This document shows positions 1,942 through 63,449 of a stretch of 64,000 bases of DNA, piece after piece (within the stretch, counting starts at the first letter, position 1; every line of letters begins with the position of its first letter). A model generated the notes under the pieces. The model had not been told where the DNA came from. It saw nothing but the letters and a program-made list of their open reading frames with translations, and made no database searches. Both the position numbers and the translations under genes were made by a program. The stretch is from Amphibalanus amphitrite (taxonomy: Eukaryota > Arthropoda > Thecostraca > Balanomorpha > Balanidae). The stretch spans positions 62,001-126,000 of the forward strand of contig NW_024881710.1 of the NCBI RefSeq assembly GCF_019059575.1, given 5' to 3'.

Positions 1942-4900
1942 GTGAGCACGCGACTCGTCCACTAAATCATATTAGATGTCCGCAACGGCGAATCTAACAC
2001 TTCAAGTTAGGCAAGTTAGGCAAGCACTTCATTTTCTACGCGGAAAGATTTTTCAGCTACAGATGTATTTAAGTCGAATCCTGCTGGCGTCATTGTGGGA
2101 CCCTAGCCGGCTGAAAAGCAATGTGAGCTGCACCCGCTGCATTCACTTGTGTTTCTGGGCGATTTAGTCAGACTAGGACTGGGAGCAGCAGGCGATGTTC
2201 GAAAGTTTGTTCAAAGGTCATATCGAAAGTGCCTCCTTTTTCTGTCGGATCAAAATAACAAAATCAGCTACCACAAGCTGTACTCACGATGAACCGATAC
2301 CGGACACAAACTCATAACGTCACCGTTTGTCTGTATCTCTCAGGCGGAAGAGCAGTGTGAGCGTCTCTCGAAGGACCTGGCCACCTCCCAGACGCGTCTG
2401 GCCGACACCGAGGAGGAGAAACGACGGCTCCTCGAGGAATCGTGTCAGGTAGGCACTCGTGGAAAACCTCGCTGGAATAGCTTTCTCCTATGAACATTCT
2501 GGAAGTAAGTCCAGTTTGTACGTTTCTATTTGTGAATGCGATAAATGCAATGGAATGGCTAGCACCTATAGGAGTTTCTCTCATGGGTTGCACGTTATTA
2601 TTGCCGCATTCATACTGTCTAATGTCTTTGCAACTCACACCCCTTCTTTCGGTACCCGTGGTTAATTGGAACTTACCCGGAATATCGAAAAATTGGCAAT
2701 GAATAACTGCATCTTATCTTCCATAGAAAAAAAAGATGGCCAATAATAGCGCTGCCTCAGTTGAGAGCGTTCTTCATAAAAGGCTCGTCAATATGTTATG
2801 GACGTATTTGGCAGCATTTTTATTTAATACAGATAAAATGCTAGTTTAATGCCTTTTCTTGAAACCGTTTAGCGTTAGCCTGTATCGGTACGCAGCAAAG
2901 TGACAAACAACCGCCTCCAGGTGAAGGAGCTCCTGAAGCGAGAACTGCGTAAGGGCGAGACAGAGCTACAGAGGAATGTCGCCATTATCGCCGACTATAA
3001 ACAGGTGAGTTCTACCGGCACATTTGTCGTTTAAAGTATTGTCTTGTTTTGCATACTCCGCATCCGCCTCTGCTCTTGCTAAAGGTGGAAGTACGAGCTT
3101 GGGTAACGAGCTGTAGTCGAAAAAAAATATGAATGATGGATATTGATTAAGTGATCTTATCCCTAAGTGGTGACCGCCAACCGGCACAGTAGCGATGGTT
3201 CTGTTATCTATACACCAGGCTGTTAAAAGGAACATTATGTGTATGGGGCACGGGCTATATTAACAGCTGCCATTGACACACCATGTTTGTCCGTGTTCAG
3301 ATCTGTAAGCAGCTGAGCGAGCGGCTGGAGCGGGAGCAGCTGGCGGCCAGCTCCGAGATTCAGCTGCTAAAGGTGAGCGCCAGCCCTTCTCGTAATGTAT
3401 GGTCACTTTCTTGGAATATAACGTCCTCTCACGAATCACGATCAGCAACGAGTGTGGCTGAGTAAACCAAATTGTGTAATTCAAAATCACCATTTTTCGT
3501 AATGAGCCCTATAACGGGTCGATAAATCTAAAAATATGTTTGATTTCTTGTCTCACAAGAATAACCCTGCCCTATAAATTTTGACTGCATCGACAATGCT
3601 GCTTATGACGGATAAATGATTTGCTAACGCATCAAAAAACATTGTTGCATCGTTTTTTTTTTTTTTTTTTTAGCTTCACCCACGTAATGGGAAAATAGAC
3701 AAGCTGCACCGCGGCTGAGACCCGCACATTCTGTACTTCTGTACCGGCTAATCTGCGTGTGTCCGTTTCTTTGGCAGGATATTGTGAAGTCGTGCGAGAG
3801 CTGCAGTCAGCGACTGAGCAGCGAGTCGCTCCGTCCGGTCCAGCACCCGCTGTCCGATCTGTGTGAGGAGCAGGACCCCGTGCGTGCCCGCGACGCCCGC
3901 ATCCGTGAGCTGGAGCTGGAGCTGGCCACCACCAAACTCGCACAAGTCGAGGTCGAGTGTAAAAACCAGGTGAGGGGAAGTTCATTTGAAGACGGCAGTC
4001 GGTTACAACAATCGGCCCTATCCATGATATCCATGGATCGATCATGGTATGAACTAATCGGCTCAGTCAGAAGTGCAGCTGACGGTATGTTTTCCCCGAT
4101 ATTTCCACTATTTGATCCTGCCTTTACTGGCTGTCGTGACGACTGAAGATTTTCACGCCAGGCAATTCAGGATGAGCTGATTATGTTTCATGGAAGTGAG
4201 CTGTGAAGAAGTGACGAGTAGTGAACCAGCTGTTATAGGAAAGTTACTTCTAAATGACGTCCCTGATTCGATGATTTTACCTATAGCGGGGATATAGAAA
4301 TTGGCCAATAGTTTATGATTGAGATGAATGGCCTTTGCAGACATTGTCGTGGATACACGAGAGCTATTACTGCTTCCATGAGTCGGATGAATAATGTAAC
4401 ATGAGAATTTGGTGGATTGGTTAATTGTGAAACAATTGTTGCCGTCGAAAATCGTTATCGATTATCGATAAGTACCTTTATTTTACATAAAAAGACATTT
4501 ATGCTCTGAGTGTCATGACTGAATTGGCACTGGAATGAGTTTGCCTATGTCTCGGGGTGATACTGCCGAATGCCGAACACTTGGTTTGTGGCATGTACAG
4601 GGTGTCCCAAAAGTAAGGTCATCATTTGTTTTGGCCACACCGCCAAAAATACGCGATGGATAGAAATAAATAGGACATGATATGAAAGAGCATTTTATAA
4701 AATTTATTCTGATATACCTATGAGTCAATACATTGTCTCGTAGCCCCACATTTGCTGCTTTTCTGCATGGCTACCATTTCGGGCCGCGTGCATGAATAGA
4801 CTGCGTTTTACTTCCTCCACTATTCTGGAGCGATTCTCTGGTGAGATGCCGCTTATGTTTGCTCGGAGAGATCATCCTTTAGTTCTTCCCGGCTCGTTGG

Positions 4901-7900
4901 GTTGTCCTAAAAGACAACCTTTCCGTTGTGTACCCAGAGAATAAAAATATGAAGGTGTAACGTCAGGTGCCCGCTGAGGCCATTCAATGGCGTTGCCCTG
5001 ACTGAAAATTACGCGATCTCACATCCACTCTCGGAGACAATGCATGATCTTCAGGACGGTGCAAGCATAGTCTCCATCCTGCTGAAACCACTGCTGGTTT
5101 ATGGTGTCGGCACAGCTGCGTTGCGACGAGCGGAAGAACCACTGGGAGGACTCTCGGCCACCTCTCTTGATTTATTGTCACCCGATTCCCGCTGTCGTCC
5201 TCAGGACCTCGAAGCACTGGTGGCTAAGTATACATGCCCTGTGCGTACGTTATACCTTTTTTCTGACGTTTTGCCGGTTGAGGCGAAACTATGCATGAGT
5301 TCAGAGATAGGGCGAGCCACAGACTTCTCTATACATGGACTGTGCACTGATCTGGCCGAAGTAGCATAAGGGGCCCAAAAGTGAACCTAGTTTTAACTTA
5401 TTAAGAACCCTGCAAACCTGGCAAAATTTAACATGGATATGGTTTGAAGTTTTATCTGTCTAGTAAGTAAAAAAAAAATGTTTTGATTTTGATATAAACA
5501 AAAAAAAATCGTTAAAAACAATAACAGTTTTCATGAAAATAGTAGTGGTAAATGATATCTGAGAATATCGGAGGTATCTCCCGCAAATAAGCACCAATGA
5601 GTTGCACGCAAATTCTTTATTTTCTGGAAATCCTGCCACAATCAAGCCAAGGCACTATATATGGCCTTGGCCAAGGCCCTAAAATTAAGCAAGGCTTCAC
5701 CACATGTAGGATATTTAGCCTATGATTTTAGTTGTCTATTTTCCATCTTTTCTATTTTCCTTTGAAAGGGTTTTTGATGACACGGAAGTGTACGGTACGT
5801 AATTGTTATTCTGGATACAGAATCACACGGCATCGGAGAGGAAGTGACAAGAGAAAGGGAAAGGTATCGGTATTTAGCTTTCCACGCGAATGTGCATTGC
5901 GAAAGAAGTGGCTGGAAGCAATCAGACGAGGTGCAAAAGAATCATACCCTAAAAGTGGTGGGGTTTGTGAGCTCCACTTTTCCAGTGATGACTTTTGTGT
6001 CACTGCCACGACAAGAAGAACCGACCGTCAGCGACGGCGCCTCAAGCCAACCGCAGTTCCAACAGTGCTCCCACCCCGGGACAAGTAAGTTGATATGTTA
6101 ATACCTCATCAAAGCAATATGGGCATTAGTAAGGTATTAAGGACATCTTAGGTGTTGAGGATGGTCTTTACATTTTGACACCTGTGAAAATTTGGGAACT
6201 CTACCTCAAATGACCTTTGATCTGTTACGTCATTAATGTGATCATGTCAGACGTTAACCCGCGCCGGGCCGGTGCCCCATCAGCGGGCCGGGGGGGGGGG
6301 GGGCGTCGTAGAGACAAGCGGTAGGCGGCGTTCGAAAGAACGGTAAAAAAAAACAGTAAGAAAGTACTTCGGTCATTTTTCGGTCAGGTCAAAAACTGGG
6401 TCACCAACCAGAGGTAACCGAAGAAAAATGTTCGTTTTTACTTCTGATGGTTTTCTTGAATAACTTTTGATCCAGACAACTCTGACGGCCCGGAGTTGGA
6501 GTCGGTTTCAGCACATTTTAATCTTTTCCTTTTCTGACCCGACCCGACCTTACAAGCTGACCTTACATGACCTCCGTAGGCCGAACTGTTAACCTGCATG
6601 CATACATAGCGGTTAAAAAGGGTCGCACATGCTGCTGAATTGTTCTTTTTGTGTATATAACTGTATATAACTTCTTTTTGTGTATATAAGTTCCGAGCTA
6701 CATTTATCAATTTATAGCATTTATCCGGCAATGTCCAAATTACCCATGTATGCTAATTTGTTTCCCATATATTTTGCAACCGTTGCTAAATGCAGTTGTT
6801 AAGTGAAATATTTCTCTCCTTTTGCAGGAATGAGAGCGGACAGGAGACTCCACGACCCACTATACGCGCGACTCCAACAGCACGAAGGCTGCTGCAAAGA
6901 GAACTGTGGGAGGAACAAGCCGCATCCATGTTTCGTTCCGAGAACGTGGCATCTCTTACCGACATGGTGAGAAAGCTCTCTACGGAGGACCTGCCGACTG
7001 GGTACCGGCTCGTACAGATGCATGTTCCTGAACTTCAGGAGGACATTGTGACGATCAGAATGGAGGCATTTGACACAGATCAAGGTATTCCAGTCATCGT
7101 ACGAAACCTGACGATCTACAGCGATCTTCGTTTCCGTTTGTACGCAGCCGGGAGCGAGTTGCCTACTCTCAGGGCAGCTGATCTGACAAGCGTTCCCGGG
7201 AGCTTCGAAACGACGACTGAGGTCCTGAACGTGCTGGCGTTCCTCAAGGCACAGTCTTTGAAAGATGGCAACGTGATGACTGCACTGCATTTTCTGCAGA
7301 AAATCAGCACGGACGATGCAGCTGGATCATGCGGTACTTTTGGGGAGTTCGCCGCTGAACAGCTGCAACTCCGACTCAGTCCAGCAAAAAGGAGGAGGTA
7401 CAGCACGACACTCATGTCCACTGCAGTGGTGTGGAGCCGAACGAGTCCCCGACTGTATGAAGACATGCGCAGCTCGGGTCTTCTGGTCCTGCCACACAGA
7501 GTCACTCTCCGGAGACTTACGTCAGCACTAAGCGTGCAAGAGGGACTGGAGATCGGGACCATCAAGTATTTGGAGATGCGGGTCGCCAAGTTGTCTCCAA
7601 GAGAACGGCTGGTAAATCTGGCCATGGACGAGGTTTACTGTGCCACAGCACTCGATCTGGCGGGAGGAAGACTGCATGGGGAGAGCAGCGGAGAAGCAAT
7701 AGCTGTCGCCAGTACCTTGTTCTGCACCCACATTTCGTCGGTTGCCGGGAACTACGAGGACTTGGTAACCATGTCGCCAGTCACCCACGTCACAACCCAA
7801 GAAATGAAGAGAATCTTCTTCCAAGTCCTGCGATGTCTCACCCATCTTGGGTACCGTGTAGTGTCCGTTACAACTGACGGACACAGAACAAACCAAGCCT

Positions 7901-10900
7901 TCCATCGAGCGCTTGGAGAAGATGGGAGGCATCAGGAGTATATCCTGAATCCCTGGAGTCCACACAGTGATGACAGGATATACACCATGTACGACTCAGT
8001 CCACTTGTTCAAAAACATGTACTTCAACCTCCTGAACAAAAAACAACTGCACTGTCCGCCACTCGATGCAGGTGGGCCTCCTCTGGATGTTCACCTCAGC
8101 CACCTGGAAAAGGTACACTCCATCGAGTACAGCTCTGATGCCAAGATGGCATACCGACTCACGGATAAGGTGCTCCATCCAACAAGCATAGAGCGCGTGA
8201 ACGTGCAGCTCGCCGTAGCAGCCACTCACGAGACAACCATCGCTGCGCTCCGCTACTATGGGCAACATGCAGAGTACGGCTCCTTAAACGGTACAGCAGA
8301 GTTCCTGCACCAAGTTCGGAGGTGGTTCGACATCGTCAACGTGAAGTCCCCTGGGAAGCATGTTCGTCGCAACGACTCGACTCTGCAGCCTATTTCCACT
8401 GGAGATGAAGAAGGGCTGGCATACATCGAGAAGTTCGGAAAGATGATGCTGCGCTGTGAAGCCCAGGGAAACAAGAAGACGCAAATGTCGCTCGACACGA
8501 TACGTGGAGTGGCAGCAACCTGTCGAGGGCTGGTCGGGCTGGCCAAGTATCTGCTCAGACAGTGTGATCTCGAGTATGTCCTGCTTGGCAAGATTCAATC
8601 CGACCGGCTAGAAGGTCACTTCGGCCATCTCCGGAAACTGGCCGGAGGCAACTTCTGGGCGAGCTCTCGTCAATTTTTTGAAGGAGAGGCTATCGTCCGC
8701 GTAAAAAGCCTAATTTGGCTCTCAGGCTATGGTCTGAGCACAGTGACGGCTGGCATGCACCCTGTCTCTCAGCAGCGCCTGGAAAACGACCAGCGAGCCG
8801 TCACTGAGATCACCGAGTATGCCGCTGCTGCCTCTTCTGATGACCCAGCCCAAGACGTCCCAGAAGGGACACAGCAGGCTCTGCACCACATAGCAGGCTA
8901 TTTAGCCCACTCAGTCAAGAAGATTCACAGATGTGATGAGTGTCGCGCGCTACTCTCTGACGGGCTAAGGGCGCAACTGGTAACCGTGGTGGCAGAGAAT
9001 GCTGAAGAAAAGCTGGTGGCTGCTAGCTTCACCGACCTCCTCAACCGTGGAAAGCTCCTGCAACCGAGTGAACTGTGCCTGCGAGTCGTCATGGAGGTCT
9101 GCCAGCTCTACAGACTTCTGGTGAATTCACAGTCAGAGACTCACACCATCCTCTTTGGCAGTTCAAGTCCCAAGAATGTGTTCAGATCTGTGGTTCAGAA
9201 CATGCTCGGCGATGACGAAGAACTGAAGGAAGTGGCTTGTGGAAGGGGGCACAAGTTTACCAGCAATATCCTCGCCACCATGGCCGGAGCGCTGTTTAAC
9301 GTGTTCGTGTCTAACCACGTGAAGGATGTGAACAGCCAAGTGCATAGCAAGAAACGAAAGGGGCCGCCGACCCGCACCAGTGGGCGCGGTGTGGACTCGG
9401 ACAAGATCCGCAAACTAACGGGCGCGAGCTGAGTTCATGCCTGTTCAAGAACATGTAGCATGCACCCTGTCTCTCATCAACGCCTGGAAAACGACCAGCG
9501 AGCCGTCACAGAGATCACAGAGCATGCTGTTGCTGCCTCTTCTGACGAGCCGGCCCAAGATGTCCCAGGAGAATCGGCCCAAGGGCTGGGATAGTGGACC
9601 AAATCGGTGTTTGTGCCCATGCTGGCCGTTGGGAATCGTTACGAATACATACGTGTGGGAACCAAAACTGTCTTTGTTGAACCTGATCGATGGTGAAAAG
9701 TAGTCCACTTGTAGCTGGGAGAATAACTTTCTGTTTTATGACAGTACCTACCATTGAACACACAACTCAAAATGCACAGAAACACTTGCATGCCTCTGAT
9801 CTTCGCTTGATATTTAAGTCCACAGCCTGGAATTTTGACTCAAGATTGGCAATTCTGGCGGGAAAACATAGCGGAAAATGTTTTGTTTTCCATTTAAGCG
9901 AAGGTTCCAGAACGTTAAAATGAATAATTCAAAGAAAAATGGCCATGCTCCCTGGCAAATGCTTCAAACGTATTGCCACAATTTTGGGCCCCTTATGCTA
10001 CTTCGGCCAGATCAGTGCACAGTCCATGTATAGAGAAGTCTGTGGGCGAGCTGATAGGGTCTGCTTAGGTCCGAAAACTGGGCGGTATTTACCCTTTGTT
10101 TTAATGACGGACCCTCTCTTGCTCAGGCTACACTAGCGACGTTTTTTCGGTTTCTGCGGGATTTCGGTTTCCGCGTTTTTTCGGTTTCTGCGTTTTTTCG
10201 GTTTCTGCGTTTTTTCGTTCCAATCGGAGCGGCCTCTGCGAATGCGTGCTATGCAGCAGCCGCATTTGTGTACGTCGTATTGTCTGATCTGTTGAAGTTG
10301 AGCCGCAGTAAATGGATCGTCAAACATTATTAAGAGTTTTATTTTTGCGCCGTGAACGCGAGAGACAGCGACGAAGCCTGTGGGTTCGCCCGGTGCTGTT
10401 GCGCCGAGAAGAGTGCGGCGAGTTCCACACGCTAGTACAGGAACTGCGCCAGAATGATCCTGAGGGCCATCGGCGCTACTTCAGGATGAGCGTCAATGAA
10501 TTTGACGAGGTGCTCGGCAAGATCGAGCCCGTCATCACGAAGGAGATCACGCACCTGAGGAAGCCGATCTCGGCAGCAGAGCGCCTGGCGGCAACGCTGC
10601 GGTAAGACCTGAAGCCTCTTCATACTTTCAATGCGCGTATAATTCTCAATGAAACACATAAGCTTGCATAACCAGAAAAGGTGCCTCAATTTCCAATCGA
10701 CTAATTACGAATATGACATAGGCGCAATGACGTAACAAAGGACTGACATTTTTTAATTACTACATATGTGTACACCTTTTGCAGTTACCTGGCGTCAGGT
10801 GGGACTATGAAGTCTGTGGCAGAATCTTACCGCATAGGCTTCGCCACGATCCGCCTGATCGTCCCTGAGACATGCCGCGCCATCTGGGAGGAGCTCGGAC

Positions 10901-13900
10901 CAGGGCTGATGGGGCTACCGTCGCCCGAGCAGTGGCGCCAGCACGCCCTGGATTACGAGGAGGAGTGGCAGTTTCCCAACTGCTGTGGGGCGGTTGATGG
11001 AAAGCATATCATGGTCGACAAGCCTGCCAACAGTGGCTCAATGAACTTTAACTATAAAGGGTTCTTCAGCATCGTGCTGATGGCTGTGGTGGACGCGAAG
11101 TGTCGCTTTCGCTACATCAGCGTGGGCAGCCACGGTCAGGAGAGTGACGGGGGAGTGTGGGGAGGAAGCGACCTGGGTCGGCTGCTGGAGGACCAAGACA
11201 ACGGCGGGCCGCCTGTTCTGCCAGGCCCAGAGCCGCTCCCTGGCTCCGCAGTGACCGTGCCTCACGTGTTCGTGGCAGATGAGGCTTTTCCGCTGCGGCA
11301 ACATATGATGAGGCCATTTCCTGGGTCGCGCCTGACGAACGACCAACGACGTGTCTTTAACTACAGACTCAGCCGCGCCCGTCGGACCTCCGAGAACGCG
11401 TTCGGGATCCTCGCACAACGGTGGCGGGTGTTCCGGGGTCCGATCGGGTGTGACGTGGAGGCCGTTAAACTCATCGTCCTGGCAACCTGCGTCCTGCATA
11501 ACTTCCTGAGAGAGAAGGACATCGAGACCAGACGTGGAGGGCCAGCGGCCTACGGCTACGTCACGCCTGAAGAGCGACGAGACATCCCCGGTCTCCGTGA
11601 CCTACGTGACGCAGGCGCGTCTCACAATCACCCTCAGCAGGCGGCCCAAGTACGAGAGAAGTACGTCGAGTACTTCAGCGGCGTCGGCAGTGTCCCCTGG
11701 CAGCTGAACAGCATTCGCCGCTAGTGAAGAACTGTGGGTGTATCATGTGTGCGTGTACGCCGTGTGTGTGTAACCACTGCCGCTGTGACTCCCATGGCGA
11801 GAGCGCATAAGAAGCGGTATGATGTTGGATGTGCCGTTCTTGTAAAAGTGATGATTTGAATTTTGAACTATTCAGTGCCTGGTCGAAACGGATTGACTGT
11901 TTCACGCCGTTTACTTGACGATTCAAGCATCGATTCAATGTGTCGTGAAGTTTGAAATATAAGCTGACGATGGTTACGATTGAATGTGTATATCGTAAAG
12001 ATGATGTCACTGTTACCGGCAATTGCTCTCAAAAACAATCAACAAGCACGGCAAAGCCATGTATTGAATGAATGTCAGCAACAAACTACTGTTGGCTGTT
12101 GCTAACCAAAACGAACAACTTATATCACAGGGACAGACGACTTAACGAAAGCTGTCTGTCCTTGTGGGCTGTGGCTATCAACGCAACGACAAAACAAACG
12201 TTGTCAACTCCAAATTGAACAATAACAGCCATAGGTAAATATCGCAGAAAAGGCAGTCTGTCCTTCATCCCTGCGGATATAAACGCCAGGACAATACATA
12301 ACAAACGTCGTCAGCTACAAAATAAATATCCATAGAGATACATACGGCAAAACAGGTTGTCTGCACACGTAGGCATCAACGTCAAGGCACCAGTTAGTTA
12401 AACAAAAAAAAAAAAAAAATCAACCACAGCCACACATACAAACACGTCGCAGTCTCAGTGACTTATGGGTGTCCTTCAGTCCTCGTATTCATCAAGGATC
12501 TGCTGGAACGCACGTTTGATCAGTTTTTTGGTGGCCTCACTCCTGTGCTGCAGCTCAGCATACACATTCATACAGAATGTGTAGTCCCTGTCAGATTGTT
12601 GTCTCCTGCTCCTATCTAGCTCCTCCAAGATAGCATAGTCTATGTCTGTTGTTTTGCGCTTGCTTCGTGTGCCCGATGTGGTGCGCGGTGTACCTTGTGT
12701 ATCCGATGTACCTTGTGTGTCCTGGCCACGCGGTGTGTGTGTGTCGTCAGCGGACGGTGTATCTTGTGTGCCAGGTGTGTGTTGTGTGCTCGGAGCGCGT
12801 GTTGTGTGTTGAGTCTGGTGGGCGCGCTGCGTGTTTTGTGTCGGTGCGTTTTGTGCGCCCAGAGCGTGCGTTGTGTCGTGCACGAGCCGTGTGCCTTGTG
12901 TGCCCGGTGTGTGTTGTGTGCCCAGAGCGCGCGTTGTGTGCTGAGTGTGGTGAGCGCGCGATGTGTTTTGTGCCGGTGCGTTTCGTGTGCTCAGAACGCG
13001 CGGTGTGTTTTCAGTGTAGTCAGCGCGCGATGTGTTTTGTGTTGTATCATGTGAGTGCGGTGTGTCGTCTGTGTTCTCCTCAGTCACTTCAATTTCATAT
13101 TGGGTATCTTCAAGATACAGGATGTGAGGGTGAGTGTTGGTCTCAGCCCCAGGATCACCTCCAGGATCATCTCCGCCTCCATGTGAATCCAGCCGGAAGG
13201 TCATGGATGAGGTTGTACTGAAAAGGAAAAAATATGGAAATAAGGAAAGGTTTGGGACGTTGAATGTGGAATGGAGAAAACCGCGCCGGACCGGCGGGGG
13301 TGGGGTTCTGAAAATCACCCAGTCTCGGCTCCTGGACCAACGTAGCGACAAACGGCGGGGCCATTTTTCAGATATCTGCGAAAAACCACTCGGGGGTGTC
13401 CACTGTCCACCCCCCCCCCCCACCCCCACCCTCTCCCCAGTCTGGAGCGGGTTAAATCAATATGGGGCAATTCCTTAACTCTGATGATTAAGTTTGGATA
13501 GAAACACACTAACGTTTCGGCAGATAAGGGAAAGGAACTGATGTGAAATATGCATTGGGTACAAAATGAGAGAACATGGCTTCAGTACATATTTCAGGCA
13601 GGCGAGCTGATGAAGTCATGGAGGAAATCATGGTTGCATTTCAGAACAAGGAACATAAGTAATCGAGTGATAAGAAATATAAAATAAACACTATGGGAGG
13701 TCATGGTAACAAAAGGTACATCCAAGTTACTATGCATGGAACTATTACCTTGAATATTTCAGCAGGACAATGACAAACTGTCAATTCTGACCTGTGTGAC
13801 AATATAGAATGATGGACAAAGTCAAAGGATGGCTGGATGGAGGACAAAGTAGGTATGGATATTGCACATCTGTTTAATACTCACGGCCCACGCTGGGTGC

Positions 13901-16643
13901 TGGGGTCCAGAAATCTGAGCATATTCCCATAGGGTCCTAGGTGCTGATGGCCACCTGCAGGTGCTGCTGATCCACTGGGCAGAGTCTTCCTTTTTCTGGC
14001 CAGATAGTAGTCCCGCAAAGACTTCCACCTCTCTTTGGCAGCTTGCACTGATGATGGAAGGAGAGTATTGTTACCATTTCATTTCATCCAACAGAACAAA
14101 ATGTCACCAATAGAACTAAATTGGTGTGCACTGTGCAGAATATAAAAACGGCTTAATTTTGGCGCAAACAGGCATCAAACTGTCGGCTAAAACAACAGAG
14201 AAATTTCGGCGCAAAACCAACTGCGCAGAATTTCAGTTTTCAGCGGATGAGGGTCTAACAGGCGTCAGGCATAGTGCATTGATGCTTTCCAGTCTGGATC
14301 GATATCAATGTATAATATATTGCAAAATAAAACACACTGATTGTGCCAAACCAATCAATAAAGGCATCTCTATGTATCTTGATCTTCTAAATTCAATCTA
14401 AATACCCTTTCTTCTTCGTGACTATGATGTTTAGACCATTTAAGTTCAATAGTGTACTTGAAAAAGCCCATTTCAAGGCATGTAACCACCAATTATTGCA
14501 AGCTCAAGTGATATCAACTGAAAACCTCAGCTGCGTAGGTAGCCAGCAGTCAGCACTCACCATCACATCTGCACTCAGCTGCCACTCTTTGCCAATCAAG
14601 ATCTTTTACAGTCTTTTTCTTTGCATAGTCCTTCGACTTTTTGTCCCACAAACCTGGGTACTTCCTGACTGCTTCAATTATTGATTCGTTGAAGTCCATT
14701 TCTGCAACAAAGAAATGCCAGTGATCTGGAGGTTGTCAAACATTCAGTACCTAATAACAACAATTATTTTAGTGATTTTCTCCTTCTGCACCATTTATTA
14801 ACTTTAATTCTTAAAATGGAAAAAAACACATCCTTCCAAGGTTGACGAATAAGACCACACATTTATAATTGTTACTATTTACACAAAACATTTATATCTT
14901 AACACCCAGCCACATGTTGTCAGGCATAGGCGGCGGAACGGGGAGGGCACCATGCCCCCCTTTGATTCTGGCATTTTAACATTAGCCCTATGGGCATTGC
15001 ATGGAAAGAATGGGACCAAAAGTCAGCAGTGCCCCCCCCCCCCTTAATTGAAGGTGTTCCGCCGCTACTGTTGTCAGGCTAGGTTATGTTACGTTGGTAA
15101 AATTAGGTCAGGTTAGCTTAGGTTTTGTTATTTCTGCTCATGATGTAGCTAATTTTTTAGCTTTACATGATCATGTGAACAATGTTCTAGATTGATAGTT
15201 GGTTTGTGACAATATGGTGTTGTCTTCATTCAGTATGGAGCCCAAGGTGCAATTTCGGGAGACTTCACAAAGGGCGATTTCACATTCTTTTCATGTGCTT
15301 AGTTAATGCGTGCAAAAATAATACAAATCAAAGCTTGAGCTTCATATTTCTCCTTGAATTTTCCACACCATCAGTGCAACTGAAATGCTGGAGCCACCAA
15401 ACTACCCAATTAATTTAATTATAACAATTCAATTCATGTGAAACACATTAGTAGGGTGAGGTTACAGATTGATTTTCATTTGATTATAACAACATTCAAA
15501 TTACCTCCACTCATTTCTCCATCTTCATCTCTCATTGCACGTTCCATACTGATGCGTAGGTAGGTGAATATCCAGAACAACTTAACACAGAAAATACGAC
15601 TATAATCTACACAAATCGGATGAAAACTGACACCTACTCAACCTTCTGTCACTTCAAAAAAGGCAGAAGTAAACAAAACAAAAGAATGCCGCTGTGCGCC
15701 ATAAAATGTCGCGTGGAACGATATCCCGCAGAAATCGAAAAAAAGTTCACGGCTCTGAACTTTTTTTCGGTTCCGACTCGTCGGTTTTTGCGGGTTTTCG
15801 TTCCACGGGACGCCAGACTGGCAGTGTAGCTTGCGCAATGCTTTCGCTATGAGGCGAACTTTACGACGCGAACCGAAATCCCGCAGAAACCGAAAAAACG
15901 TCGAAATTCATGCTAGTGTAGCTTAGGCTTAAGAGTTGAATTTCGACCTTCTCAGTTTTATGCCTACTGCTCGGTGTAGTTATGATCAAAAATGGTTTAA
16001 GCATGCAAGAAAATAATTTTATGGATGTACCTTGCACGTGTTAAAATTGGAAGTGATTCGGACTCTTACTTCTCGAGATATTTAAGTTTTAAATCATGAC
16101 CTTACTTTTGGGACACCTTGTATTCTGTAGGCCTGATATGAGATCAAAAGGAAATTTAGGTAAGTGTTGGGTATGAAGCTTCTCAATTGACAGCCCATTG
16201 ACTTTTTCCACGTCAGTTCCTTTGCAACACGTTGAAACATAGCGAATTTTGGATACCGTTTTCAGTAAACCAACTGTCACAAGCTTGTTGTTTGATGTTT
16301 CCATTCTGTGCAAGATCTGATAGTCTAGTGTGGGGTCATAGAGAGCTTAAATATGAAAGTTATCTATAGATGGGTCAACCCTAAATTACTCGTACATGGT
16401 CTATGCATGAGCTCATTTAAAATTGTTCATGTAGGTATTGTGCACCGTTGCGTGCTTGTCTGAGCCGACACTGACATCGAGTCTCAGGGGCTGCTGCCTT
16501 ACCGTTGACTGTGGTTGGTCTTTTCTCAGGATCTGACACACCAAATGGGCGCCGCGCTTGCTGAGCTGCAGGCTTCCAAGAGCACATGGTTCCACAAGAC
16601 ACTCTCCTCTATAAAGGAAGCCGCTAAGAAGGAGAGTGGCTAG
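1790..16643 (+). CDS. RABGAP1: RABGAP1/RABGAP1L-type Rab GTPase-activating protein, C-terminal exons (5' partial)
   Basis: Six exons at 1790-1941, 2344-2448, 2921-3004, 3301-3372, 3778-3969 and 16530-16643 (stop TAG) join in one frame. All internal boundaries are phase 0, and acceptors end in AG with donors GTGAGN or GTAGGC. The roughly 238 residues are a charged coiled coil. Family landmarks are NDDLALELVTGKIQLQ, AIIADYKQICKQLSERLE, a CxxC-like CESC, RELELELATTKLAQVE, and the C-terminal STWFHKTLSSIK, which in vertebrate RABGAP1 and RABGAP1L reads nearly the same. These proteins stimulate GTP hydrolysis by Rab GTPases through a TBC domain. That domain is not in this window, so only the regulatory and dimerising tail is seen. 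The paralogue (RABGAP1, RABGAP1L) cannot be decided from the tail; EVI5 fits less well. The last intron is inflated to 12.6 kb by nested transposons. Confidence 0.9.
2344..2448 (+). CDS. RABGAP1: RABGAP1 coiled-coil exon
   Basis: 35 codons, phase 0 at both ends, between tatctctcag and GTAGGC. It contains LATSQTRLADTEEEKRRLLE, the counterpart of the vertebrate KQRLVETEEEKRK stretch. Confidence 0.9.
2921..3004 (+). CDS. RABGAP1: RABGAP1 coiled-coil exon
   Basis: 28 codons, phase 0, between ccgcctccag and GTGAGT. It ends in NVAIIADYKQ, a conserved RABGAP1 motif that continues into the next exon as ICKQLSERLE. Confidence 0.92.
3301..3372 (+). CDS. RABGAP1: RABGAP1 coiled-coil exon
   Basis: 24 codons, phase 0, between tccgtgttcag and GTGAGC. 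It encodes ICKQLSERLEREQLAASSEI and then QLLK. Confidence 0.92.
3778..3969 (+). CDS. RABGAP1: RABGAP1 exon with CxxC-like motif
   Basis: 64 codons, phase 0, between ctttggcag and GTGAGG. It carries CESC, where vertebrate orthologues have CKHC, and then RIRELELELATTKLAQVEVE. Confidence 0.92.
3970..4597. other. RABGAP1 intron, unique part
   Basis: Intron sequence between exon 3778-3969 and the mariner insertion. No coding or repeat structure was recognised. Confidence 0.6.
4620..5309 (-). pseudogene. Broken mariner transposase, C-terminal part
   Basis: Read on the minus strand in shifting frames, this gives INQQWFQQDG (around 5100), RAPDVTPSYFYSLGTQRKG (around 4950) and ENRSRIVEEVKRSLFMHAA followed by a short tail (around 4800). 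These are the FQQDG, APDLTP and C-terminal blocks of mariner transposases. The normally conserved FFLWG is degraded and frames are broken, so it is a dead copy. The P element interrupts it upstream. Confidence 0.75.
5318..5380. repeat. P-element left terminal inverted repeat
   Basis: 63 bp, a perfect inverted match to 9982-10044. It begins CACAGACTTCTC and ends GGGCCCAAAA. Confidence 0.95.
5777..9432 (+). CDS. THAP-domain P-element transposase, two exons, intact
   Basis: Exon 1 is 5777-6084 (ATG at 5777) and exon 2 is 6828-9432. The donor GTAAGT at 6085 leaves two bases that combine with the first base after tttgcag (6821-6827), giving 970 codons plus stop. Residues 1-103 are a THAP zinc finger: C5, C10, C64 and H67 form the C2CH set, with FSFP, W45 and the AVPT box at 93-96. 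The rest is the RNase H-like P transposase. Likely catalytic acidic residues are D370 in LAMDEVYCA, D453 in SVTTDGHRTN, and E698 in SDRLEGHFGHLRK. The THAP domain binds the element ends and the catalytic core cuts and joins DNA in the nucleus. The length is near that of THAP9 and P transposases. The single intron is 743 bp. No frameshift is seen, so it may be active or domesticated; perfect terminal repeats favour a mobile copy. Confidence 0.9.
6254..6592. repeat. Possible degraded piggyBac-like repeat inside the transposase intron
   Basis: It starts TTAACCCGCGCC at 6254, as do the elements at 55757 and (nearly) 20012. It is followed by a G tract and by TGACCT/AGGTCA motifs, and another TTAA lies at 6589. 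The right end does not match well, so this is tentative. Confidence 0.35.
9456..9590 (+). pseudogene. Diverged second copy of a transposase segment after the stop codon
   Basis: About 130 bp closely matches 8750-8880 of the transposase coding sequence, for example CGCCTGGAAAACGACCAGCG in both. It lies in the 3' untranslated part of the same P element, with several substitutions and no intact role as an exon. Confidence 0.85.
9982..10044. repeat. P-element right terminal inverted repeat
   Basis: A perfect inverted match to 5318-5380. The final G at 10044 also counts as the first base of an 8-bp target duplication. Confidence 0.95.
10141..10215. repeat. Subterminal tandem repeats of the Harbinger element
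   Basis: Four imperfect copies of CGTTTTTTCGGTTTCTG lie just inside the left end, with inverted counterparts near the right end. Such repeats are commonly bound by the element's own DNA-binding protein. Confidence 0.65.
10312..11724 (+). CDS. Harbinger DDE nuclease/transposase, two exons
   Basis: Exon 1 is 10312-10601 and exon 2 is 10785-11724. The donor GTAAGA at 10602 and acceptor ttttgcag join in phase to give LAATLRYLASGGTMKSVAES, for a total of 409 residues. The C-terminal half is the DDE_Tnp_4-type nuclease: D168 in GAVDGKHIMVDKP, D262 in VFVADEAFPL, and E300 in RTSENAFGILAQRWRVF, followed by ATCVLHNFL. These match HARBI1-like proteins. The protein cuts element ends and joins them to target DNA, normally together with a Myb/MADF partner such as the gene at 12476-14699. 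The frame is intact, so the copy could be functional. Confidence 0.9.
11725..12475. other. Spacer between the two Harbinger genes
   Basis: Non-coding, lying between the tail ends of two convergent genes. A run of 15 A at about 12405-12419 is present. No other feature was recognised. Confidence 0.5.
12476..14699 (-). CDS. MADF-domain protein of the Harbinger element, three exons
   Basis: On the minus strand, exons 14699-14561, 14047-13885 and 13217-12476 join with consistent phases (139, 163 and 742 nt) to give 347 residues. Residues 1-100 are a MADF domain: MDFNESIIEAVRKYPGLWDK, then KTVKDLDWQRVAAE, and VQAAKERWKSLRDYYLARKR. The middle of exon 3 is a low-complexity run rich in Thr, Gln, His and Asp (repeats like TQHTPGTQDT). 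The end, FCMNVYAELQHRSEATKKLI, resembles a BESS-like interaction helix. Such proteins bind element ends and carry the nuclease into the nucleus. Convergent orientation with the nuclease gene supports one element. Confidence 0.85.
14700..14925. other. 5' flank of the Harbinger MADF gene
   Basis: AT-rich DNA upstream of the MADF start codon. It presumably holds the promoter, but no clear motif is seen. Confidence 0.4.
14927..15062. mobile_element. Short MITE, GGCGGCGGAAC family, copy 1
   Basis: Ends TAGGCGGCGGAAC and GTTCCGCCGCTA are inverted. TGTTGTCAGG occurs on both sides (about 9-10 bp target duplication), which suggests a Mutator-like origin. A second copy lies at 28960-29104. This copy inserted into the Harbinger element. 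Confidence 0.8.
15713..15810. repeat. Hairpin-forming inverted repeat near the Harbinger right end
   Basis: GTGGAACGATATCCCGCAG pairs with CTTTTTTTCGGTTCC and CGGGTTTTCGTTCCAC on the opposite arm. The motif resembles the element's own subterminal repeats, and a further TIR-like GGCAGTGTAGCTT lies at about 15822. It may be a duplicated end or a nested short derivative. Confidence 0.6.
16530..16643 (+). CDS. RABGAP1: RABGAP1 terminal coding exon
   Basis: 37 codons plus TAG after acceptor ttttctcag (16521-16529), phase 0. It encodes DLTHQMGAALAELQASKSTW followed by FHKTLSSIKEAAKKESG, matching the conserved C-terminus of RABGAP1/RABGAP1L. It is separated from the previous exon by 12,560 bp of intron. 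Confidence 0.95.
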   Translation, partial: DLTHQMGAALAELQASKSTWFHKTLSSIKEAAKKESG

Positions 16644-18923: not shown

Positions 18924-21900
18924 CTACCTGCGGCCGAAGCGAAGCTTGCGAACCCTTTCTGGTCTGCCGTCATGATCGATTTCATGGTCTCCGAGCTCGC
19001 TGCGAAACGGAGGCAGTCGCCTGAGCAGGGTGAACGCCTTCTTGGAGAGGACGTGGTGCGACAGGTCCAGGCGCCAGCTGGCCGGCTCCTTGGGCTGCGC
19101 GCTGGTGGGTGGCTCCACTCGCCGCCTGGATGACCGCTCCGGCTTCCAGTTGAGCAACTGATCTTGTCGCCGGGCCGCCCTATGGGTCATCTGTCGACCG
19201 TCCGACTGTGCCGCCTTCCATCGGGACAGGAGCTGACCCGGTGACTTGGAGACGTCCCCAAGTGTGAGCTGCCACGGACCCGGCTCTTCAAGGGTGTCAT
19301 CGTGGCTAGTTTTCCAGAGACCGAGCTCTTCTGGCGTGCTCTCAGGGTTGGTTTGCCAGGGGCTTGACTCGTCTGACGTTTCCCTAGTCTGCCACGGGGC
19401 CGGGTCTTCTGACGCGCCCCTAGTCTGCCACGGGGTCGACTCTTCTGGGTTGTCCGCGTGGTTGATTTTCCACAGACCAGACTCTTCCGTGATGTCCCCG
19501 TGGTTGGTTTTCCACAGACCGGGCTCCTCCGAAGCGCCCCCGTGGTTGGTTTTCCACAGACCGGGCTGTTCTGAAGCGCCCCCGTGGTTGGTTTTCCACA
19601 GACCGGGCTCCTCCGAAGCGCCCCCGTGGTTGGTTTTCCACAGACCGGGCTGTTCTGAAGCGCCCCCGTGGTTGGTTTTCCACAGACCGGGCTCCTCTGA
19701 AGCGCCCCCGTGGTTGGTTTTCCACAGACCGGGCTGTTCTGAAGTGTCCCCGCTGGTCGTCTGCCACGGGATCGGCAATGGTCGCTCGTTGCTGTGACGT
19801 AGCAGTCCGGCGGACACGAGTCGCAGCACACCAACGGCGGCCACACACCTGGGAACAGCATCATGACACAGTCAATACGCAATGTATACATAATCGGTGT
19901 AAAATGTATGCCCATAGTTCTCTCACCAGCACGATGCAAAGCCTAAACATAGGTCAGAGGTCAGGTCAAAGACCCTGAGATCGGGTTTTAGATTTTCTTC
20001 TCGCAAATAACTTAACCTTCCAGGCGGTAGGGGGGGGGGGCATTTTTTGCCCCCCCCCCCTTTAGTTTTTTCGATATATCTAGAGAACCGCTAACCGCTG
20101 CGCCGATCGTCACCAAACTTTCAGCACCCTCCCGGGAGTAGCTAGCGCACATGGTGACCAAATTTTTTTCCAAAGGCTATGATAGGTTGGCCGCTAATGA
20201 CGGCAGAGTGACGTCATTTTTGCCATTTTCGACCCAAAAAAAGGTTTCGCGGGAAGAGCTGTCAGGCCTACAGCTTTAGAGATACAGAAAAATGTTCCAG
20301 ACGTAAAAGGTGTGGAATCAAGAAGGCTACAAAACTGCTATTTTGGTTTTTCGATTTTTTTTTTTTGGATTTTGACCCCTAAAATAAAAAAATAGATTTT
20401 TTGAAAATAATAGCTGAAAAATCCAAAAAAAATGAATTTCGAAAAAACCGGAATATATGTGAAAGTCCCTACCACCTTCTATCTACATACCAAATTTGAG
20501 ATCAATACCTCTTTTTTGGCCAAGTTATAGCGAAAAAAACTGTTCAAAATTGATGACGTCAAATTTTCAAACTCAATTTTTTAGCAATTCTAGACCTCGT
20601 AGCGCAAAACAAAGACCACCATTAGACTCCCCATGACGAGCTGCATCGAATCGATACCCATTTTATGCAAAAATATCAACTTTGAAATTTTACCTTTTTT
20701 GACCTGACCTTGACCTGACCTCCGCCAGAAAGTGACCTAAACCGTACCTGATGGTCTTATAACCAATACCATTGAGTTGGAAATGAAAAACTGGTCATAA
20801 AACATGCATCGCACAACCTTAGTAAAGTTGGGTTCATGTGGTACCTACTGGTGACCCTTGGTGACCTTTAGTGACCTGACCTGTGACCTGACCTGGTATG
20901 ACCAGTGACCTCTAATAGCAACATATGTACTAGACAACTGACGCCTTATCGCTGATTTTCGACAAAATGCGTTTTACTCGGTGTTATAGCGCTTTCCTTA
21001 GAAGCCCCGTGAACGGTGAAACATTTTATCTTTGACCTGACCTGTGACGTCATCGGTGACCCCTAGGTCAATGAAATTTGGTTTCCTTCAACAAAGTTGA
21101 CAGGGCTATCGAACGCCGTTTGAATTTTCCGGATCCGTCCAGTAGTTTCGGAGATACGAGGGGGGGGGGGCAAAAAATGTCCCCCGCGCGGAAGGTGGCT
21201 GGGAGGCCCACCGCCTGCCGGGTTAAACAAAAATGGTCCTAGGGCTAGGACAGTGGTAGGTACCAATGCATTCGTCTTGTCAAGACGCGTCTAATGGCAT
21301 ATTTTGTGTTTCGTGACGGTTAAGTTTTATGTTGACCTTACTTGACCTCTCAAATGACATGTACCTAGATGACGTTGACACATACTAAGTCGTTTATGAT
21401 ATTGTATTCGTAGCCGCTGATCACAAATATGACATCCATTTTGTTGGGCCATGTCAATGGCGAAATTACTTGAATCATTTCTTAGGTCAGGTCAAAGGTC
21501 AGGTTTTCAGAGGTTTAACGGGCAACTTTCATCAGTGTTCTGACAATTTTCGACAAACCGACGTATAACTCGGAAACGAAAGACCCACGGCGCCCCATGG
21601 AGAAGTGCATTTGATATACCGTTAGGTGGGGCTATTTGAGACAGTATTTAAAATTGCTATAAAATAAAAACCACTTAAAATTTATGCTTAATTTTTTGCT
21701 CAGGCGATTTACTGCTCGATTCCACACCTCCCTGAGCAAAAATAGGTATCACACACAAAACGATCGATCAAACGATCAAACAATCTTCATTTTATAGCGA
21801 TTTTAAATACTGTCTCAAATAGCCCTACTGTCTCAAATAGCCCCACTCTACGGTAGGTATATGTTAACGTTCTTTCCAATTCCCTCAGATTTGTTCTTAG

Positions 21901-22926
21901 GCCAACGGTGTAGACTTAAGCCTACAGGGGGCAAACACTGCCAAAATAGATAAAATTTGCGGAAACGGTTTCCTGTAAGAACTCTTGACTCACACATTGC
22001 ACCAGCTTTTTTACCGGCATCGTGTTCCCTTCGTCAAGACGCGTCGAATGGACTATATTTTGACCTTGAAAGGTTAGGTTAAAGTTGACCTCAGTTTAAG
22101 CCTACGGCAATGACCTGACCGGAGAAGGTCGTGTTGCATATCAGTCGATCCGTATCGTCGAGCTGAATAGTGAATGCATCTGAGGTGTTTTTTATCACTT
22201 TAGCATGCCTCTATTCAAAAGTCATTGGCGAAAAACTGTTGCGTAACTTTCGTGACCTGAGATGACCTCAGCTGAGTTTGCGTCACTGACTTTTGCGATC
22301 GATATCCACTGAACCCGATTACAACACGCTGACGAAGTTTTTGTAAGCTTGATAATTGTTTTTTTTTCTTACATACAAATACTAATAAACATACCTAGGT
22401 GAGCTGTGGCCTAGGTGATTAAGTGACGCCTGTATATCGGACGTGTCGCTCGAGCCAGTGTATTCCACCGTGACCGAGCTATCCCCGGGCGGTCGGCCAA
22501 TTGCAGGGATGTATGGAACCTGGTTGGAACCTCCGGGCTATCGGCCGGCCATATCGCGCCGCGCCTTTTCATACCAGGCCGCCTCGTCCTGGAACCGCCT
22601 GCCGCCGGCCGCGCTAGTTCCCGAGCTCAGAGCTGAGTTTTTACGTTTACCGGACATGTGCGTTTTATTTTTGTCTCAATTCATCCATGTGTGGATCGTA
22701 GGTACTGTGTGTGTTTTTTCTTCTTTGGATGTTAATGTCTCATTTATGTACCTATCTAGACTCGGGGTAACAATTAACCCACCGAGTGAAATAGCTTGTA
22801 AATAAACAGCGCGGAACAACCTAAATGGAACGGAACGGAACGGTGGGCACAATGTCTTATACACATTACATACTGTGGGCAGTGCCACACTGCCGCAGTC
22901 ACTCACCTGAAGAGGTGGACCGCCAT
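18924..22926 (-). CDS. Predicted secreted repeat precursor ending in LRFGRR (new gene, two exons)
   Basis: I do not recognise a family. On the minus strand, exon 1 (22926-22907, ATG in a good start context) ends at donor GTGAGT and leaves two bases. Exon 2 (19848-18924, after ttcccag) supplies the third, giving 314 residues. Residues 1-20 (MAVHLFRCVAAVGVLRLVSA) look like a signal peptide, with V18-S19-A20 fitting a signal-peptidase site. Thirteen tryptophan units follow from W35, mostly 14 residues long (GLWKTNHGGASEEP, with E/Q alternating; diverged PWQT versions outside). The C-terminus has dibasic sites KK (276-277), RR (283-284) and final LRFGRR, where Gly-Arg-Arg is an amidation and cleavage signal. 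It could therefore release an RF-amide-like peptide. Weak points: the repeats keep all frames open, exon 1 is only 20 coding bases, and the 3.06-kb intron is transposon-filled. Confidence 0.55.
19480..19750. repeat. 42-bp coding tandem repeat with 84-bp higher order
   Basis: Near-identical 42-bp units (CCCCCGTGGTTGGTTTTCCA followed by CAGACCGGGCTSYTCYGAAGC) alternate between two versions, giving the E/Q alternation in the minus-strand protein. Outer units are diverged but keep Trp and acidic positions. Confidence 0.9.
20012..21226. mobile_element. piggyBac-like non-autonomous element, copy A
   Basis: It is bounded by TTAA on both sides. The left reads TTAACCTTCCAGGCGGTAGG and the inverted right TTAACCCGGCAGGCGGTGG, each followed by a G tract, CATTTTTTGCCCCC and a C tract. 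The interior is about 45-bp-to-kilobase similar to 55757-56933 (for example CAAAGGCTATGATAGGTTGG against CAGAGGCTATGATAGGTTGG). No transposase. Its right half is dense in TGACCT. It lies in the intron of the minus-strand repeat-precursor gene. Confidence 0.75.
21227..22442. repeat. TGACCT-rich repetitive intron DNA with two related blocks
   Basis: Blocks at about 21268-21360 and 22030-22110 share TCAAGACGCGTC, AATGG, ATATTTTG and following TTGACCT motifs, so they are diverged copies of one repeat. A separate palindromic element sits between them (21621-21852). Confidence 0.5.
21621..21852. mobile_element. Palindromic MITE, GTGGGGCTATTTGAGACAG family
   Basis: The left arm GTGGGGCTATTTGAGACAGT continues into ATTTAAAATTGCTATAAAAT. 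The right arm is its inverted match, ending CAAATAGCCCCACTCTACGG. The arms are about 42 bp with a 130-bp interior and no coding capacity. CTGTCTCAAATAGCCC is repeated twice at the right end. Confidence 0.75.
22443..22812 (+). pseudogene. 3' end of a LINE-type reverse transcriptase
   Basis: The frame gives SRRAFSYQAASSWNRLPPAA, the C-terminal signature of non-LTR reverse transcriptase polyproteins (RxxFxxxAxxxWNxLP). A short 3' tail with AATAAA at about 22800 follows. The 5' part is absent, as in a 5'-truncated insertion. It lies in the intron of the minus-strand gene, in opposite orientation. Confidence 0.65.
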
Positions 22927-25789: not shown

Positions 25790-27592
25790 CAGGGGCGGAT
25801 CCAGGAAAACTCCAAGGGGAGGGTCATGAATCGAAGTGGTGCCCCTACCTATACCCAAAATTAAAAACTCAACGGATTTCGTCCACTTCATTTTGGTGGT
25901 GCCCCCATTTTCAGTTTTTTATTTTTATTTTTATTTTTAGTCAGTATCTTACCTCTTAGCCACAACCACATTTACCAATTGTAAGCAAGTATATATGAAT
26001 GTGCTATGTGTATATATGTTGTGGACGCTGAGTAATGAGTACTTACCAGGAACGTTATCAGGTAAGCAAATCGTTGTCAGTCCGACGAACTTGACCCTGG
26101 CGCCTAAAGGGTCTGTCCTTGACACTTCAGGCTTGTCAGGGGCACCAAAGTCCTTCCAGGGACACCACAAACCTGTCAGGGGCACCTACGGCCTTGTAGG
26201 GGCGCCACAGGCCCGCCAGGGGCACCACAGGCCTGCCAGGAAGCAGGGGCACCACAGGTCTAGCAAGTATACACGACAGGCCTGTCAGGGGCACAACGGG
26301 CCTGTTGGGCCCATGAGCACCCCTAGGGGCAGGGGCACCACAGTCCTTCCAGGGGCACCTCAGGCCTGTGAGGGGCACCAGCGGCCTAGCAGGGGCACCA
26401 GTCAACACAGGCCTGCCAGGGGCACCACAGACCTGCCAGGGGCACCAGAGGCCTGCCAGGAGCACCACCGACCTCGCAGGGGTGCCCAGGGGCACCACGG
26501 GCCTGTCGAGAGGCACTTCAGGCTTTTCAGGGGCACCATAGTCCTCTCAGGGCGCAGGGGTAGCAGGGGCACCAGAGGCCTGCCAGGGGCACTACAGGCC
26601 TAGCAAGGGCACCACTGGTCTATCAGGGGCACCACGAGCCTGTCATAGCCAGGCATCTCAGGCTTGTCAAGGCCCAGGGGCACCACAGGTCTGTGAGGGG
26701 CACCAGCGACCTAGCAGGGGCACCAGTCAACACAGGTCTGCCAGGGGCGCCACAGACCTCCCAGGGGCACCACAGACCTGCCAGGGGCACCAGAGGCCTG
26801 TCAGGGGCACCACCGGCCTCGCAGGGGCACCTTGGGCCTGTCAGGGGCACGACGGGCCTGCCGAGGGGCACTTCAGACTTTTCAGGGGCACCAGTCCTCT
26901 CCGGGCGCAGGGGCACCAGAGGCCTGCCAGGGGCACCAGCGGCCTAGCAAGGGCACCAGAGGCCTGCCAGGGGCACCAGCGGCCTAGCAAGGGCACCAGA
27001 GGCCTGCCAGGGGCACCACAGGCCTAACAAGGGCACCACGGGCCTGTCAGGGGCACCTCAGGCTTGTCAGGGCCCAGGGACACCACAGTCCTTCCAAGGG
27101 CACCGCAAGCCTGTCAGGGGCACCAGAGGCCTGCCAGGGGCACCACAGGCCTAGCAAGGGCACCTCTGGCCTGTCAGGGGCACCTCAGGCTTGTCAGGGC
27201 CCATGGGCACCACAGTCCTTCCAGGGGCATTACAAGCCTGTCAGGGGCACCAGAGGCCTAGCAAGGGCACCACAGGCCTGCCATGGACACCACAGGCCTG
27301 CCAGGGGCACCACCGGCCTTGCAGGGGCGCCTCAGGCCTGTCAGGGGCACCACGTGCCTGCCGGGGACACTTCAGGCTTGTCAGGGGCGTTACAGTCCTG
27401 TCAGGGCCCAGGGGCACCAGGCCCGTGGTGTCCCTGCTAGGCCTGTGGTGCCCCTGGCGGTCCTGTGGTGCCCCTGTCAGGACTGTGATACCCCTGATAG
27501 GCCGGTGGTGCCCCTGGAAGGTCTTTGGGCCCCCGGGCCTCAAGGGAGGGGCCATGACCCATGTGACCCCCCCCCCCTTGGATCCGCCCCTG
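25790..27592. mobile_element. hAT-like non-autonomous element carrying a minisatellite
   Basis: Terminal inverted repeats CAGGGGCGGATCCA (25790) and TGGATCCGCCCCTG (ending 27592) are flanked by identical GGCCGGTC at 25782-25789 and 27593-27600. The 8-bp target duplication is the hAT hallmark. There is no transposase; the interior is mostly a 20-bp tandem array. Confidence 0.92.
26100..27530. repeat. 20-bp minisatellite array, about 70 units
   Basis: The unit is GGGCACCACAGGCCTGTCAG with variants. It fills the hAT-like element. From about 27420 the orientation flips (GGTGCCCCTG units), so the right edge forms an inverted repeat with the main array. Open frames across it (period 20 aa over three units) are by-products, not genes. 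Confidence 0.92.

Positions 27593-31179: not shown

Positions 31180-63449
<32,270 letters not shown>

What the first reader, a model, noticed from the sequence alone, without database searches (positions are those of the whole stretch)
18924..22926. Possible new secreted peptide precursor with tryptophan repeats and a C-terminal LRFGRR
Seen: a 20-base ATG exon (22926-22907) and a 925-base exon (19848-18924) on the minus strand splice in phase into 314 residues that start with a plausible signal peptide. They contain thirteen Trp-centred repeats and end in RKLRFGRR. Known: Gly followed by dibasic residues after RF is the processing signal of amidated RF-type neuropeptides. Inference: the final 27 residues after RR (285-311) may be an amidated peptide, and the repeats may be a spacer or further product. 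I match no known precursor family.
Basis: partly seen in the sequence, partly recalled or inferred. Interest (0 to 1): 0.82.

Follow-up and report, generated by a model that had tools for sequence, protein, structure and literature searches.

The report
Barnacle gene for candidate RF-amide neuropeptide
A barnacle genome carries a real two-exon gene for a probably secreted protein that has tryptophan repeats and ends in the processing signal of an RF-amide neuropeptide, with no recognised relative; that the peptide is actually made is not yet shown.

Summary
In detail: two exons join in phase into 314 residues with 13 Trp-centred repeats and the end RKLRFGRR. The window lies in an 807.6-Mb genome that encodes exactly the published Balanus amphitrite pigment-dispersing hormone, so it is a barnacle. 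A second copy lies on a contig collinear with the window, best read as the other haplotype. There the frame, start codon, donor, acceptor AG and stop are kept, the only coding indel is 3 nt, and pN/pS is 0.33. The repeats also evolve as protein. The gene is therefore real.

No further copy of the C-terminal part was found, and no Pfam or PDB relative. Myosuppressin-type and NPF exons lie elsewhere, so it is neither; a diverged short neuropeptide F remains a rival. Best reading: a precursor with an acidic, uncleaved Trp-repeat region and a basic tail releasing LPPFRSELGDHEIDHDGRPERVRKLRF-NH2. Transcription, secretion, cleavage and amidation are inferred.

The parts
22907..22926 (-). exon 1, coding part: ATG GCG GTC CAC CTC TTC AG (MAVHLF + first 2 nt of codon 7), followed by donor GTGAGT
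   Evidence: the other copy has ATGGCGGTCCACTTTTTCAG|GTGAGT. The in-frame extension upstream of the ATG is shifted by compensating 1-nt indels between the copies, so this ATG is the likely start.
19849..22906 (-). intron (3058 nt here, 1976 nt in the other copy)
   Evidence: two inserts (about 20014-21222 and 21618-21853) are missing from the other copy
18924..19848 (-). exon 2, coding to TAG stop
19809..19848 (-). exon-2 part of the proposed signal peptide (CVAAVGVLRLVSA; possible cleavage VSA|G)
   Evidence: mean hydropathy 2.76 over residues 8-15; residues 1-20 differ by 4 synonymous and 1 non-synonymous change between copies; no signal-peptide predictor was available
19242..19775 (-). thirteen Trp-centred repeats (12-14 residues each), net acidic, no dibasic site
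18927..19241 (-). basic C-terminal part with dibasic sites at residues 233, 248-250, 276, 283, 307 and 313
18936..19016 (-). predicted amidated peptide LPPFRSELGDHEIDHDGRPERVRKLRF-NH2 (residues 285-311; calculated monoisotopic amide mass 3269.73)
   Evidence: one D-to-E change between copies; processing is inferred
18927..18935 (-). Gly-Arg-Arg amidation and cleavage signal directly before the stop
   Evidence: same residues in both copies

Best explanation
This is a protein-coding barnacle gene for a neuropeptide or peptide-hormone precursor. A signal peptide split by an intron directs the protein into the secretory pathway. Residues 32-209 are an acidic, probably disordered Trp-repeat region without dibasic convertase sites, acting as spacer or propeptide, or leaving as one long by-product. 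Convertases cut the basic C-terminal part at its dibasic sites. The last cut, after RR284, with trimming of the terminal RR and amidation through Gly312, releases LPPFRSELGDHEIDHDGRPERVRKLRF-NH2, which would act on a receptor that recognises a C-terminal LRF-amide. Shown: an intact frame under protein-level constraint in two copies, with the terminus kept. Inferred: transcription, secretion, cleavage, amidation, receptor action. The coding gene itself I hold at about 0.95; the peptide-precursor function at the value given here (lowered from 0.58 on re-checking, because the tail's synonymous sites are also nearly unchanged).
For: Gene model and terminus. Both copies intact with pN/pS 0.33 and one 3-nt coding indel, against non-triplet indels in UTRs and intron. 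Residues 1-20: 4 synonymous, 1 non-synonymous change. Repeat units constrained in the true frame. Dibasic sites confined to the C-terminal part in both copies. A terminal RFG[KR][KR] has a composition-based chance of about 1e-5, any G[KR][KR] end 0.3% (post hoc). A low-confidence, mostly unstructured single-sequence model is compatible with a precursor. Myosuppressin-type and NPF exons lie elsewhere; no second locus for the C-terminal part besides the probable allele.
Against: No transcript, peptidomic or SignalP evidence. R16 lies in the hydrophobic run. No canonical polyadenylation hexamer within 2.4 kb downstream. The internal R-K directly before LRF could be cut, leaving a mere LRF-amide. 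Residues 263-314 are 51 of 52 identical between copies, but synonymous sites there are also nearly unchanged (1 synonymous, 1 non-synonymous), so this is not by itself proof of constraint on the peptide. Both copies come from one genome. The terminus was singled out after being seen. The Trp repeats have no proven role in this model although all 16 W are kept.
Confidence: 0.55

Rival explanations
1. A secreted repetitive protein (gland, cuticle, cement or defence protein) whose working part is the Trp-repeat region or the basic C-terminus; the RFGRR end is incidental or only a cleavage site.
For: 13 tandem repeats fill more than half of the protein and all 16 W-[KQR] are kept in both copies; acidic repeats (-18) against a basic tail (+13) is also the layout of propeptides that neutralise a cationic peptide.
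Against: Residues 116-208 (late repeats) change most between the copies (pN 0.071) and the tail least (pN 0.009 over 263-314), though pS in the tail is low too (0.026), so this is weak; the end RFGRR-stop is unlikely by composition.
Confidence: 0.22
2. A strongly diverged barnacle short neuropeptide F: the end KLRF-amide is one conservative step from the sNPF signature RLRF-amide.
For: The arthropod review gives -RLRFa as sNPF end (PMC12035899, passages); a search of the genome with a canonical sNPF peptide gave no match; the families named in the passages seen of the 2012 barnacle survey do not include sNPF.
Against: The P-S-L before RLRF is absent (here E-R-V-R-K-L-R-F); the precursor has a large repeat region; one search had no positive control, and its own note says that an empty answer shows nothing.
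Confidence: 0.12
3. The coding gene is real but the first exon is wrong, and the protein is intracellular (for instance a Trp-motif docking protein).
For: No transcript evidence; the hydrophobic run is short and broken by R16.
Against: The only perfect minus-strand donor lies 20 nt after the start of an ATG in good context; ATG and donor are kept in the other copy, and the region upstream is frame-shifted between copies; residues 1-20 show 4 synonymous to 1 non-synonymous change.
Confidence: 0.09
4. Not a gene: an open tandem repeat in G+C-rich DNA.
For: Repeat units of 3n length stay open cheaply; other frames are also long; openness of the C-terminal part alone is likely by chance.
Against: pN/pS 0.33 between copies, only a triplet indel, splice sites kept; frame-specific constraint among repeats.
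Confidence: 0.02

Closest known systems
Arthropod myosuppressin precursors
   Same: One LRF-amide peptide close to the C-terminal end of its exon frame (in this genome [15 protein letters not shown]-stop and [15 protein letters not shown]-stop; the general precursor layout is recalled)
   Different: No D-[VLM]-D-H-V-F-L-R-F; 27-residue peptide; long Trp-repeat region; canonical myosuppressin exons lie elsewhere in this genome
Short neuropeptide F (sNPF)
   Same: Last four residues KLRF-amide against RLRF-amide (PMC12035899 passages)
   Different: No P-S-L-R-L-R-F core; single long peptide; large repeat region; no canonical sNPF was found in this genome (no control)
Neuropeptide F (NPF)
   Same: Long peptide with amidated RF end
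   Different: No RPRF and no Tyr at all; an NPF core ending ...DDYYSNVARPR is encoded at C933 and C1168
Extended FMRFamide/FLRFamide precursors
   Same: LRF-amide end
   Different: Those are mostly multi-copy precursors (PMC12035899 passages; PMC4696782 passages); here one copy

Membership tests
Amidated peptide precursor (general kind) | N-terminal signal peptide | tested here: inconclusive
   Hydrophobic residues 8-15 and a VSA cleavage-like site, kept between copies, but R16 inside; hydropathy only
Amidated peptide precursor (general kind) | Dibasic site before and Gly plus dibasic signal after the peptide | tested here: met
   RR283-284 and G312-R313-R314-stop in both copies
Amidated peptide precursor (general kind) | The amidated peptide exists | not testable with these tools
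   needs peptidomics
Myosuppressin | xDxDHVFLRF-amide core | tested here: not met
   End is PERVRKLRF; canonical cores lie at C504/C1260 and C465/C566
Neuropeptide F | Hormone_3-type core ending RPRF-amide | tested here: not met
   No Pfam match, no Tyr; such a core lies elsewhere (below the Pfam cut-off, recognised by reading)
Short neuropeptide F | RLRF-amide end with P-S-L before it | tested here: not met
   KLRF preceded by E-R-V-R; a diverged member is not excluded
Extended FMRFamide-like peptides | F[LM]RF-amide ends, mostly in several para-copies | tested here: not met
   One RFG in the protein, ending KLRF; no PF01581 match in the protein. The genome search with PF01581 rang nowhere, not even at the myosuppressin exons or in controls, so that model is insensitive
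Sulfakinin | Y-G-H-[ML]-R-F-amide with Tyr | tested here: not met
   Protein has no Tyr

The most novel reading that the evidence does not exclude
A neuropeptide family without known relatives, so far seen in a barnacle: a 27-residue LRF-amide whose precursor carries a Trp-repeat region (16 of 16 W-[KQR] kept) that is itself functional, for instance as a second secreted product or as a sorting or storage domain.
Probability: 0.3. Interest if true: 0.65.

Novelty: new variant of a known kind. Interest (0 to 1): 0.5.

Why it matters
Neuropeptides are implicated in barnacle settlement, and the 2012 barnacle survey states that the FMRF-like peptide seen by antibodies was not found in its transcriptome (PMC3462748, passages). 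A new RF-amide gene, and the two myosuppressin-type exons found on the way, are candidates for that immunoreactivity. An RF-amide with no family would also be a new ligand to pair with an orphan receptor.

Tried and rejected
Rejected: myosuppressin and NPF identity; chance open frame; an upstream in-frame start (frame shifted between copies).

Led nowhere: Rfam at gathering thresholds and tRNA scans, 0 hits; Pfam without a match for this protein; PDB sequences (2 matches, best E 0.22); viral and prokaryote contigs: 1 and 35 stretches matched a pattern, none a relative, as expected for an animal gene; PF01581 and the sNPF query over the own genome: empty and uninformative by the tool's own notes. 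Literature strings KLRFamide, KLRF-NH2, KLRFa, LRFGRR, GLWKTN, KLRFGRR and RKLRFamide, RKLRF-NH2, VRKLRF, KLRFamide, RKLRFa: 6 papers and 1 paper, none on an RF-amide by title and abstract start; only open-licence PMC is covered. Structure: one single-sequence model, mean pLDDT 47.8; no fold search made because of that.

Papers: passages only of PMC3462748 (plus its section 14), PMC4696782, PMC12035899, PMC13329902, PMC11331182, PMC8270832 and PMC8371367; PMC7441091 only as a search listing; the A. amphitrite genome paper (10.3389/fevo.2019.00465) is not held.

Organism: assembly size did not match the 609 Mb quoted for the published A. amphitrite draft (PMC8270832 passages), so the species within barnacles is not settled; the PDH identity supports a barnacle.

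Full report
What is there. The start lies in GCCATGGCG context, and its 20-nt exon ends at CAG|GTGAGT, the only perfect donor of the four variants counted on the minus strand of the window. G+C is 0.63 in exon 2 and 0.44 in the intron, and by codon position 0.635, 0.533 and 0.727, an order common in G+C-rich coding DNA (recalled).

Which organism. The window is G000:C213:62001-126000 in an assembly of 807,550,619 bases and 2644 contigs. The pigment-dispersing-hormone family rang once over its cut-off, and the place reads ...KRNSELINSLLGLPKIMNEAGR, identical to the mature peptide published for the barnacle Balanus amphitrite (PMC3462748, passages). I take it to be a barnacle, probably Amphibalanus; the assembly size differs from the 609 Mb quoted for the published draft (PMC8270832, passages), so the species is open.

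Second copy. Exon 2 has one further match in the genome, at C693 (94% identity). About 59.5 kb of C693 (212501-242000 and 250001-280000) were compared with the window. Matches of 250 bases or more run, apart from a few repeat matches, in the same order from window 1757 to 63933, mostly at 88-99% identity; C693:242001-250000 was not fetched. The two intron inserts and window 4597-16117 lack a counterpart. This is what two haplotypes of a very diverse species look like; an average coding diversity near 5% is reported for the barnacle Balanus improvisus (PMC8270832, abstract passage). A recent segmental duplication cannot be excluded.

Is it coding. Between the two copies pS is 0.117 and pN 0.039 (26.5 synonymous and 27.5 non-synonymous differences by Nei-Gojobori counting, ratio 0.33); the only coding indel is one codon, while the 3' UTR, intron and 5' UTR differ by indels of 1, 2, 4, 5 and 7 nt among others. 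Ratios by part: residues 1-20 0.10, 46-115 0.21, 116-208 0.42, 209-314 0.40; the counts per part are small. At the acceptor the AG is kept, the first exon base differs (G/A) and the codon remains Arg. Independently, nine distinct repeat units compared with each other give pN/pS 0.56 in the true frame; the five other frames give 0.61 to 1.23, the 0.61 being an antisense frame. In 2000 column shuffles 19 reach the observed value. Against this, openness of the frame alone is weak evidence: 28% for the C-terminal part and 0.9% for a non-redundant version under a first-order Markov model.

Anatomy. Residues 1-20 look like a signal peptide with a short hydrophobic run (C8-L15) and R16 after it. Residues 32-209 are 13 units centred on W, with net charge -18 over 32-208 and no dibasic site in either copy. 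Residues 209-314 have charge +13 and dibasic sites at 233, 248-250, 276, 283, 307 and 313; at residue 248 the other copy has Gly, leaving RR. All 16 W are followed by K, Q or R in both copies. The peptide between RR284 and Gly312 is LPPFRSELGDHEIDHDGRPERVRKLRF; the other copy has one D-to-E change. The internal R-K before LRF is a possible further cut. AlphaFold2 on the exon-2 protein alone gives mean pLDDT 47.8 with no helix or strand in the repeats and helices in the C-terminal part; without an alignment this says little. No canonical polyadenylation hexamer lies within 2.4 kb downstream, nor in the 3.4 kb; the other copy shows only AATACA in 1352 nt.

How it probably works. Secretory entry, spacer or propeptide repeats, convertase cleavage in the basic tail, amidation through Gly312, release of one LRF-amide. 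Only the gene, its protein-level constraint and the kept end are shown; the rest follows from the established handling of Gly-dibasic signals.

Compared with what is known. No Pfam family, no PDB relative. A search of the own genome with the C-terminal 106 residues gave 13 matches up to E 10, of which only the two copies are significant; the next has E 0.37. The Trp repeats were sought genome-wide only as DNA of exon 2, not as a protein. The genome encodes two myosuppressin-type exons, [12 protein letters not shown] and [12 protein letters not shown], each at two places, and an NPF core ...FLRKLDDYYSNVARPR at two places, so this gene is neither. A canonical sNPF query found nothing, without positive control; KLRF against RLRF leaves a diverged sNPF as a rival. 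Literature strings found no such peptide; eight paper searches in all were made.

Verdict. A real gene and a good candidate for a new RF-amide precursor in barnacles; function unproven. I score it as a new variant of a known kind, interest 0.5.

Noticed in passing
L018, L019 (C504, C1260) and L020, L021 (C465, C566): Two distinct myosuppressin-type exons ([14 protein letters not shown] and [14 protein letters not shown]), each at two places, perhaps two paralogues with two haplotypes each. The word myosuppressin does not occur in the main text of the 2012 barnacle neuropeptide survey.
   Followed up: partly
L023, L024 (C933, C1168): NPF core ...KTLTFLRKLDDYYSNVARPR, ending at what looks like an exon border; below the Pfam cut-off, so easily missed by profile scans.
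   Followed up: partly
window 4597-16117: About 11.5 kb without counterpart in the other copy; it holds an 880-aa TNP-like transposase frame (6790-9432), a THAP domain frame (5732-6088) and a DDE_Tnp_4 frame (10747-11724).
   Followed up: partly
window 20035-21185 and 55838-56868: A repeat element of about 1.1 kb with 27-base inverted ends (96% alike) rich in C/G runs; the two window copies are 77% identical; the first lies in the intron of the gene and is missing in the other haplotype.
   Followed up: partly
window 21617-21855: Short element with inverted arms (GGGGCTATTTGAGACAGTA...), missing in the other haplotype.
   Followed up: no
window 46705-49261: This stretch is 99% identical between the two copies while matches around it are mostly 88-95%.
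   Followed up: no
window 26128-27406: Array of about 60 copies of a 20-base unit, matched only at 75-78% in the fetched part of the other copy.
   Followed up: no
window 59961-60941: Long plus-strand frame with a weak, sub-threshold match to the BIG2 C-terminal domain (E 0.0027, 18.3 of 27 bits), perhaps the last exon of an Arf-GEF-like gene.
   Followed up: no
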